Assembly: GCA_016192945.1 (NCBI GenBank)
Contig: JACPTE010000011.1
Location: 1-34,533, forward strand
DNA: 34,533 nucleotides
Reading direction: 5' to 3'
Source: Candidatus Woesearchaeota archaeon
GTDB taxonomy: Archaea > Nanobdellota > Nanobdellia > Woesearchaeales > UBA10216
The translations under genes and the position numbers were made by a program. The notes beneath the pieces are model-generated. The model had not been told where the DNA came from, did no database searches, and saw nothing but the letters and a program-made list of their open reading frames with translations. Below, one piece after another: positions 13,304-23,262 of the stretch. Within the stretch, counting starts at the first letter, position 1. Each line of letters begins with the position of its first letter.

Positions 13304-13336
13304 CTTTCAGGCGTTATTGAAAACCTTTGTTTTGCA

Positions 13337-13485
13337 GGTCAGACGCTTCCTTTCAGGAAGCTCTCAGCACCCCGAAGGGGGCAACCCCCGCTTCGCTGAC
13401 CACTATGAGCCAGTCGGTGCGGCGGGGGAGGGTTGTTCCTTCGGATACCCCCGCAGGTTTTTTCAGCAGAAAAAACCGTCGCACC
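13337..13485. ncRNA. Candidate structured RNA: two adjacent multi-branch hairpin domains
   Basis: Domain 1: outer stem GGTCAG(13337-42)/CTGACC(13396-401) enclosing GCTTCC-tttca-GGAAGC and GGGGG-caa-CCCCC. Domain 2: outer stem GGTGCG(13416-21)/CGCACC(13480-85) enclosing GCGGGGG(13422-28)/CCCCCGC(13448-54) and GGTTTTTT-cagcag-AAAAAACC(13456-77). Confidence 0.5.
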
Positions 13486-13539
13486 ATCAAAAAGAAAGTA
13501 GCTTTTCAATGCCACCAACTTTCAGCAATCTTTTTAAAT

Positions 13540-13550
13540 ACTGTTCTGAC
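13540..13550 (+). promoter_or_regulatory. TATA-like promoter element upstream of the tRNA-Arg half/full tandem
   Basis: CTTTTTAAATACTG about 20-25 nt before the 5'-half tRNA at 13565; no comparable box directly upstream of the intact tRNA at 13668. Confidence 0.6.
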
Positions 13551-13561
13551 TTTTCTTGATT

Positions 13562-13601
13562 TATGGACCTGTAGCCTAGCCTGGATAAGGCGACAGCCTT
13601 C
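13562..13601 (+). pseudogene. Exact 5'-half copy of tRNA-Arg, ending in the anticodon
   Basis: TATGGACCTGTAGCCTAGCCTGGATAAGGCGACAGCCTTC (40 nt) identical to 13665-13704; then diverges to CGCGCGCAAAC instead of TAAGCTGT. Confidence 0.9.
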
Positions 13602-13667
13602 CGCGCGCAAACTAGCGGTTTGCGTCGCTACTCAAGTGGTGGGGTGTGAAGCCCCATAACGGACTAT

Positions 13668-13742
13668 GGACCTGTAGCCTAGCCTGGATAAGGCGACAGC
13701 CTTCTAAGCTGTAAATCCGGGGTTCGAATCCCCGCAGGTCCA
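13668..13742 (+). tRNA. tRNA-Arg(TCT)
   Basis: GGACCTG/CAGGTCC acceptor, anticodon arm ACAGC-CTTCTAA-GCTGT, T-arm CGGGG-TTCGAAT-CCCCG, discriminator A. Confidence 0.95.
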
Positions 13743-13843
13743 CTCTATAACTATGCGGGGTGTTTTAATTGCAGAAAAAATCAAGGGACAGCGCAGCTAA
13801 AAAGAAAGACATATTTTGACATTAAGCTGATTGCCATAAACTG

Positions 13844-23175: not shown

Positions 23176-23262
23176 AGCCCCCGGAGAGATTTGCACTCTC
23201 AGCCTACAGCTTACGAAGTTCGGCACAGAAGTTCTGCCGCTCTGCTGTTGAGCTACGAGGGC
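23176..23262 (-). tRNA. tRNA-like gene, best read as tRNA-Thr(CGT) with a ~15-nt intron (unresolved)
   Basis: Acceptor GCCCTCG/CGGGGGC, D-stem GCTC/GAGC, T-arm GAGAG-TGCAAAT-CTCTC, discriminator T (consistent with archaeal tRNA-Thr). 87 nt; removing 15 nt (ACTTCTGTGCCGAAC) gives 72 nt with loop TTCGTAA but an A-G mismatch at 31-39. TATA-like ATTTAAAT upstream. Confidence 0.55.

What the first reader, a model, noticed from the sequence alone, without database searches (positions are those of the whole stretch)
13562..13742. Exact 5'-half tRNA-Arg copy placed between the promoter and the intact tRNA-Arg(TCT)
Seen directly: 40 nt (TATGGACC...GCCTTC) are identical at 13562-13601 and 13665-13704. 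The first copy stops inside the anticodon and continues into 63 unrelated nt with their own hairpins (CGCAAAC-tagcg-GTTTGCG and TGGGG-tgtgaag-CCCCA). The only clear TATA-like box precedes the half copy, so the primary transcript probably starts at the tRNA half and reads into the full tRNA. Inference: this could be a genetically encoded 5' tRNA half, an RNase P/maturation decoy, a scar of element integration at the anticodon loop, or residue of tandem duplication.
Basis: partly seen in the sequence, partly recalled or inferred. Interest (0 to 1): 0.72.

Follow-up and report, generated by a model that had tools for sequence, protein, structure and literature searches.

The report
Mobile hairpin insertion duplicating tRNA half
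In this tiny archaeon a 63-base two-hairpin insert, probably one copy of a small mobile element found across related archaea, sits inside the arginine tRNA gene with a 40-base direct repeat, so an orphan tRNA half lies between the promoter and a still intact tRNA; related elements elsewhere are tRNA introns, which hints at how archaeal tRNA introns may arise.

Summary
A 40-nt exact repeat (13562-13601, 13665-13704) puts tRNA-Arg(TCT) nt 1-37 plus 3 upstream nt behind the only good TATA box, followed by 63 nt and then the intact gene. It is not a one-off. In 159 tRNA genes of eight Woesearchaeal genomes, 10 have a copy of their first 12 nt upstream and 10 a copy of their last 12 nt downstream, against 9 and 2 hits for 1881 internal 12-mers. 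Inserts between partial copy and intact gene are two-hairpin elements, in one orientation at tRNA 5' ends and reversed at 3' ends. Their core hairpin, N1N2A-Y-CTTTT...AAAAG-C-TN2'N1'ACCAAA, is strongly covarying and present in 41 of 211 phylum genomes (control: none). The same core occurs in D-, anticodon- and T-loop tRNA introns and at protein-gene ends with direct repeats up to 96 nt. Best reading: insertion of a miniature mobile element with a TSD-like duplication; the tRNA half is a by-product. The window insert itself is a diverged member (similar to a G007 tRNA-Glu insert, missing the core motif). Mobilising enzyme unknown: no Cas1; Y1 transposase does not track. A functional leader is not excluded.

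The parts
13533..13540 (+). TATA box TTTAAATA, the only strong one; 32 nt before nt 1 of the first (partial) tRNA copy
   Evidence: same spacing as promoters of ordinary tRNA genes of the family
13562..13601 (+). direct repeat copy 1: TAT + tRNA-Arg nt 1-37 (orphan 5' half), ends inside the anticodon
   Evidence: 40/40 identical to copy 2
13602..13664 (+). 63-nt insert with two hairpins; probably a diverged member of the two-hairpin element family
   Evidence: hairpins; similarity to G007 tRNA-Glu insert, 0/500 shuffles; G001 tRNA-Asp insert 4/500
13603..13628 (+). hairpin 1 (GCGCGCAAAC-TAGC-GGTTTGCGTCGC)
13639..13657 (+). hairpin 2 (TGGGG-TGTGAAG-CCCCA and flanking pairs)
13665..13704 (+). 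direct repeat copy 2, inside the intact gene
13668..13743 (+). intact tRNA-Arg(TCT), no intron

Best explanation
One copy of a miniature, non-coding, two-hairpin mobile element inserted into the tRNA-Arg(TCT) gene at the anticodon loop. The event duplicated about 40 bp (3 nt of leader plus nt 1-37), so the order became promoter - orphan 5' half - element - intact tRNA. Transcription starts at the orphan half (inferred from the TATA position) and reads into the intact gene; RNase P, whose RNA gene is present, would then cut the mature 5' end and discard the half plus element as leader (inferred). The tRNA survives because the duplication restored it. Shown: the repeat, the promoter position, recurrence of the layout, the related element at other tRNA ends, in tRNA introns and at protein-gene ends with direct repeats. 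Inferred: that the element moved here as DNA or RNA, and that the half has no function. Unknown: the enzyme.
For: Terminal-only partial copies are strongly enriched (10/159 and 10/159 against 9/1881 and 2/1881 internal 12-mers). Young examples have long exact repeats that include non-tRNA DNA: 40 (window), 44 (G007 Thr, 30 nt of it upstream), 50 (G007 Glu), 43 (G003 Arg-TCG 3' side), so duplication is at DNA level. Inserts at different tRNAs of one genome are near-identical (G003 Arg and Cys), and the strong hits of pattern and model searches checked by reading lie at tRNA ends. 3'-side inserts are the reverse complement of 5'-side ones. Core AAAAGCTYRACCAAA: 73 hits in 27/145 order genomes, reversed control 3; broader core 41/211 phylum genomes, control 0. 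19 of 79 copies have significant flanking direct repeats, e.g. 51/51 nt exact at an ORF end (L377), 33 nt at an ORF start (L327). Core hairpin: 78/97 copies fully complementary with six pair combinations at the foot and a kept Y.C mismatch. Window insert resembles the G007 Glu insert, whose array also holds a perfect core copy. Relatives G001, G007, G008 have the promoter directly next to tRNA-Arg; G007 is also syntenic with the window upstream of the tRNA.
Against: The window insert itself lacks the core CTTTT/AAAAG...ACCAAA and was not hit by the covariance model R2 nor by the core pattern; only one of nine family inserts matches it beyond all shuffles, and the summed score over the nine was reached in the shuffles. 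Direct-repeat length varies widely (12-96), unlike ordinary transposases. No enzyme: Cas1 absent from 21 genomes; Y1 transposase absent from most element-rich genomes. Leader heads stay exactly equal to their own tRNA at orthologous loci (Glu, Ser), which a purely inert relic would not need.
Confidence: 0.6

Rival explanations
1. A functional leader: the duplicated 5' strand in the leader competes with the native 5' strand for the 3' acceptor strand, making tRNA maturation a switch, with the hairpins as structural spacer.
For: RNAfold pairs the leader head with the 3' acceptor strand in 7 of 8 loci. Leader heads match their own tRNA exactly and persist at orthologous tRNAs: Glu in G000, G003, G007; Ser(TGA) in G003, G008 and in G037 of another family, where tRNA and leader share the changed base. 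Hairpin 1 keeps pairing through compensatory changes.
Against: Elements occur in both orientations relative to the tRNA and at protein genes and inside introns, so no one RNA function fits. An identical competitor strand is expected to win or tie in folding software. G008 Ser goes the other way. Concerted exchange between direct repeats could also keep heads identical.
Confidence: 0.15
2. Local tandem duplication by polymerase slippage or template switching at hairpins, with no mobile element; the 63 nt are just diverged local DNA.
For: Breakpoints fall in tRNA loops (D-loop nt 12-14, anticodon loop, T-loop nt 59-62); arrays of two units exist (Glu, Ser) and look like minisatellites.
Against: Inserts share sequence between different tRNAs and genomes and have a conserved covarying core found away from tRNAs.
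Confidence: 0.15
3. Relic of intron loss: an older intron-containing gene (5' half - intron) whose 3' part was replaced by an intron-less copy made from mature tRNA.
For: Insert position and orientation equal those of the core element in anticodon-loop introns of the same tRNA in relatives (L057, L064); partial copies often end near intron positions (37/38, 59/60).
Against: The repeat includes 3 nt upstream of mature nt 1; other repeats include 25-38 nt of upstream DNA, which mature tRNA lacks. 3'-side inserts are antisense.
Confidence: 0.07
4. A genetically encoded 5' tRNA half made as a small RNA.
For: Promoter spacing puts the transcription start at the half.
Against: Most other loci carry only nt 1-12 to 1-16, not a half; no independent terminator or conserved processing site seen.
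Confidence: 0.03

Closest known systems
tRNA-Thr fragment + 1.8-kb mobile element + intact tRNA-Thr with gained intron in Caldiarchaeum (Sugahara et al. 2012, PMC3293823)
   Same: 5' tRNA fragment upstream, foreign DNA between, complete tRNA downstream; mobile element linked to intron gain
   Different: There the insert is 1.8 kb and codes a putative recombinase; here it is 63 nt, non-coding, and related inserts recur at many tRNAs, also at the 3' side and at protein genes
Integration of SSV1 / pNOB8-type elements into archaeal tRNA genes
   Same: direct repeat of part of a tRNA of about 44 bp with the gene restored (SSV1 44 bp, quoted in PMC3293823)
   Different: no integrase gene, far too small, several copies per genome, also at protein-gene ends
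[quoted passage not shown] 2010, cited in PMC4390854; content from memory)
   Same: related introns at different positions of different tRNAs
   Different: here the intron-like element also sits outside genes with direct repeats, in another archaeal lineage
Eukaryotic introners (from memory; PMC11782384 cites Roy et al. 2023)
   Same: mobile elements found as introns
   Different: tRNA genes and archaeal splicing instead of spliceosomal introns; mobility enzyme unknown

Membership tests
Two-hairpin element family of this lineage (defined here) | lies between a partial terminal gene copy and the intact gene, hairpin 1 next to the partial copy | tested here: met
Two-hairpin element family of this lineage (defined here) | core N1N2A-Y-CTTTT..AAAAG-C-TN2'N1'ACCAAA in hairpin 1 | tested here: not met
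   window hairpin 1 is GCGCAAAC-TAGC-GGTTTGCGTCG; no R2 hit at the window; no core-pattern hit in G000
Two-hairpin element family of this lineage (defined here) | sequence similarity to known members | tested here: inconclusive
   0/500 shuffles for G007 Glu insert, 4/500 for G001 Asp, others not significant; summed score 176, best shuffle 180
Archaeal split / trans-spliced tRNA half | no intact copy of that tRNA; halves joined by BHB splicing | tested here: not met
   intact tRNA-Arg(TCT) present; no other long copy found in the own genome
BHB intron (5' half spliced to second 3' half) | bulge-helix-bulge at the junctions | tested here: not met
   identical repeats need a self-pairing 4-mer; only TGTA, CTAG, CTGG (nt 6-20) qualify, none at the anticodon junction; full BHB modelling not done
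Casposon / Cas1 integration | Cas1 in the genome, 14-15 bp target duplication | tested here: not met
   PF01867 absent in 21 genomes; young repeats 40-50 nt
IS200/IS605 (Y1) derived MITE | Y1 transposase present where element is abundant; no target duplication | tested here: not met
   PF01797 absent from G009, G103, G099, G183, G248; direct repeats present. G000 itself has two Y1 hits
tRNA-targeting integrative element (SSV/pNOB8 type) | direct repeat of tRNA part with restored tRNA | tested here: met
tRNA-targeting integrative element (SSV/pNOB8 type) | integrase gene in the element | tested here: not met
   insert is 63 nt

The most novel reading that the evidence does not exclude
A tiny mobile element family of the Woesearchaeales and relatives is a running source of tRNA introns (archaeal introners). 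It inserts with long direct repeats; at gene ends it leaves a spare terminal copy (the window is such a case at the anticodon loop), inside tRNA loops it persists as a spliced intron. The window would be an early stage that could become an anticodon-loop intron if the second 5' half decayed.
Probability: 0.35. Interest if true: 0.88.

Novelty: new variant of a known kind. Interest (0 to 1): 0.66.

Why it matters
Where archaeal tRNA introns come from is a long-standing open question; the evidence known to me is one population case with a 1.8-kb element and sequence-related introns in one order. Here a single short, covarying motif links tRNA introns at three positions, partial tRNA copies at gene ends and insertions at protein genes in about a fifth of 211 phylum genomes, giving many insertions on which gain, orientation and repeat formation can be tested directly.

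Tried and rejected
Casposase/Cas1 (no Cas1 in 21 genomes). Y1 transposase (no association). Loss of RNase P as the reason for leaderless tRNAs (RNase P RNA found in G000 and 16 relatives). Splicing of the half to the second 3' part (self-pairing requirement). A known RNA family in the insert (Rfam at E<=10: only the tRNA and chance hits). A decayed third tRNA copy in 13304-13528 (63/500 shuffles as good). First covariance model R1 from a poor alignment, replaced by R2. Literature searches for a prior description in Woesearchaeota/DPANN or for archaeal introners found none in the open-access library; subscription papers were not searchable.

Full report
WHAT IS THERE. The window is contig C7 of a 1.07-Mb, 92% complete genome. 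Its closest held relatives, by topoisomerase VI-A next to the tRNA, are Candidatus Woesearchaeota groundwater MAGs (85% identity to JACPBS010000006; that contig has the same number and length as G003:C5, so it is my G003). The 40-nt repeat is exact, the downstream tRNA-Arg(TCT) is complete and intron-less, and 63 nt with two hairpins lie between. The only strong TATA box is 32 nt before nt 1 of the orphan half; the intact tRNA has no good box (4/8 against 8/8). Among 102 tRNA genes of the family without copies, 66 have a box of 7/8 or better, mostly 31-37 nt before nt 1; of nine first copies five reach 8/8, one 7/8 and three 5-6/8. RNase P RNA is present, so the intact tRNA can be freed from such a leader.

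EMPTY SITE. In G001, G007 and G008 the promoter sits directly before tRNA-Arg(TCT). G007 shares the upstream gene with the window (by reading). So the extra 103 nt look like a gain in the G000 lineage or in its common lineage with G003, which has its own partial copy at this gene.

RECURRENCE. G003 has a 12-nt 5' copy (one mismatch) before tRNA-Arg, 24 nt before tRNA-Cys, two copies before tRNA-Glu, two before tRNA-Ser(TGA), and 3' copies after Arg(TCG), Ser and Asn; G000 has two copies before tRNA-Glu. In 159 tRNA genes of eight genomes, 10 have a 5'-terminal copy upstream and 10 a 3'-terminal copy downstream within 250 nt; internal 12-mers gave 9 and 2 hits out of 1881. Copies are terminal: 5' ones start at nt 1 or include upstream DNA, 3' ones end at or run past the last nucleotide. 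Inner breakpoints lie in or near tRNA loops (nt 12-14, about 24, 37, and 59-62).

THE INSERT FAMILY. Inserts between copy and gene share two hairpins and sequence. The G003 Arg and Cys inserts are nearly identical; a pattern from them hits only three places in 145 order genomes, all at tRNA 5' ends. The strong hits of model R2 (E < 0.005), as far as checked by reading, lie at tRNA loci of G000, G003, G007 and G001. Its hairpin pairs through compensatory changes (six double-change cells, 0/500 shuffles). Inserts on the 3' side of tRNAs are the reverse complement, and a separate profile built from 3'-side inserts of other families also hits the 5'-side inserts in reverse; a joint profile recovers both.

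THE CORE LOOKS MOBILE. The 15-mer AAAAGCTYRACCAAA gave 73 hits in 27 of 145 order genomes, up to 10 per genome, reversed control 3. A looser hairpin pattern gave hits in 41 of 211 phylum genomes, up to about 16 per genome, control 0. In 97 fetched copies the hairpin foot is N1N2A/TN2'N1' with CAA/TTG, TAA/TTA, CGA/TCG, GCA/TGC, TGA/TCA, CCA/TGG (78 fully complementary), with a kept pyrimidine-C mismatch and ACCAAA tail. By reading (not formally scored), a bit more than half of the copies are in tRNA introns (D-loop: L324, L325, L329, L350, L352; anticodon loop: L332, L358; T-loop: L330, L334-L336, L355-L357, L360, L362) or tRNA flanks; the rest are mostly at protein-gene ends, including about 17 copies, mostly right at start codons, in G074 and G130. 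A few 15-mer hits are chance matches in coding sequence without the hairpin (L319-L321, L340). A crude T-arm motif is near 34 of 78 core copies against 16% of random positions. Nineteen of 79 copies have significant direct repeats of 17-96 nt whose first copy usually ends where hairpin 1 begins; L377 has 51/51 nt, the last 51 nt of an ORF. Insertion with a long duplication is therefore not tRNA-specific.

IS THE WINDOW INSERT A MEMBER? By layout yes: position, orientation, two hairpins, long exact repeat including non-tRNA bases. By sequence only partly: it aligns with the G007 tRNA-Glu insert (CTACTCAAG, hairpin 2, CGGAC) better than 500 shuffles and with the G001 Asp insert at 4/500, but not significantly with the other seven, the summed score was reached by shuffles, and hairpin 1 lacks the core. 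The G007 Glu array holds both a perfect core copy and the diverged type that resembles the window, which links them. I put membership near 0.65.

MECHANISM. Best supported: insertion of a short element with a TSD-like duplication that restores the gene. The enzyme is open. Cas1 and Y1 transposases were tested and do not fit. Variable repeat length argues for widely spaced nicks with fill-in (as in target-primed reverse transcription) or for recombination of an excised circle; this is inference. Arrays such as Glu could grow and be homogenised by recombination between the repeats (inference).

FUNCTION. The leader head is predicted to outcompete the native 5' strand for the 3' acceptor strand in seven of eight loci, and heads stay identical to their own tRNA at orthologous genes. 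That is compatible with a switch or with concerted evolution; the data do not decide. No evidence was found for a stable encoded tRNA half.

KNOWN BACKGROUND. The closest case is Caldiarchaeum tRNA-Thr, where a 5' fragment, a 1.8-kb recombinase-coding insert and an intron-bearing tRNA are adjacent, and the authors propose intron gain through mobile-element integration (PMC3293823). SSV1 integration gives a 44-bp tRNA direct repeat (same source). Intron transposition is reported for Thermoproteales (cited in PMC4390854). I found no description of this element family.

VERDICT. Taken alone the window locus is a modest finding; the link to tRNA introns raises its interest.

Noticed in passing
window 23176-23262 (-): A second tRNA gene (RF00005, 44 bits), missed by ARAGORN; its extra length suggests an intron.
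   Followed up: no
window 13330-13495: GC-rich, strongly foldable stretch (-72.8 kcal/mol for 166 nt) between the membrane-protein ORF and the tRNA promoter; the spacer is much shorter in G007. No Rfam match; not a significant tRNA remnant.
   Followed up: partly
L366-L381 (G074, G130): About 17 copies of the core hairpin in these two sister genomes, most of them immediately before start codons of protein genes (..AAAAGGTT|ATG), i.e. as 5'-UTR elements.
   Followed up: partly
L147 (G003), L226 (G008), L302 (G037): tRNA-Ser(TGA) has a conserved 5' partial copy with a hairpin in two families; in G037 the copy carries the same changed base as its own tRNA.
   Followed up: partly
L324, L325, L329, L350, L352, L354, L361, L364: D-loop introns in tRNA-Glu, tRNA-Arg(TCT) and other tRNAs made of this element; those of L361 and L364 begin and end with inverted copies of the core.
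   Followed up: partly
L019 / L058 (G007:C24): The contig ends 42 nt into tRNA-Arg(TCT), so the downstream side of this syntenic locus could not be compared.
   Followed up: no
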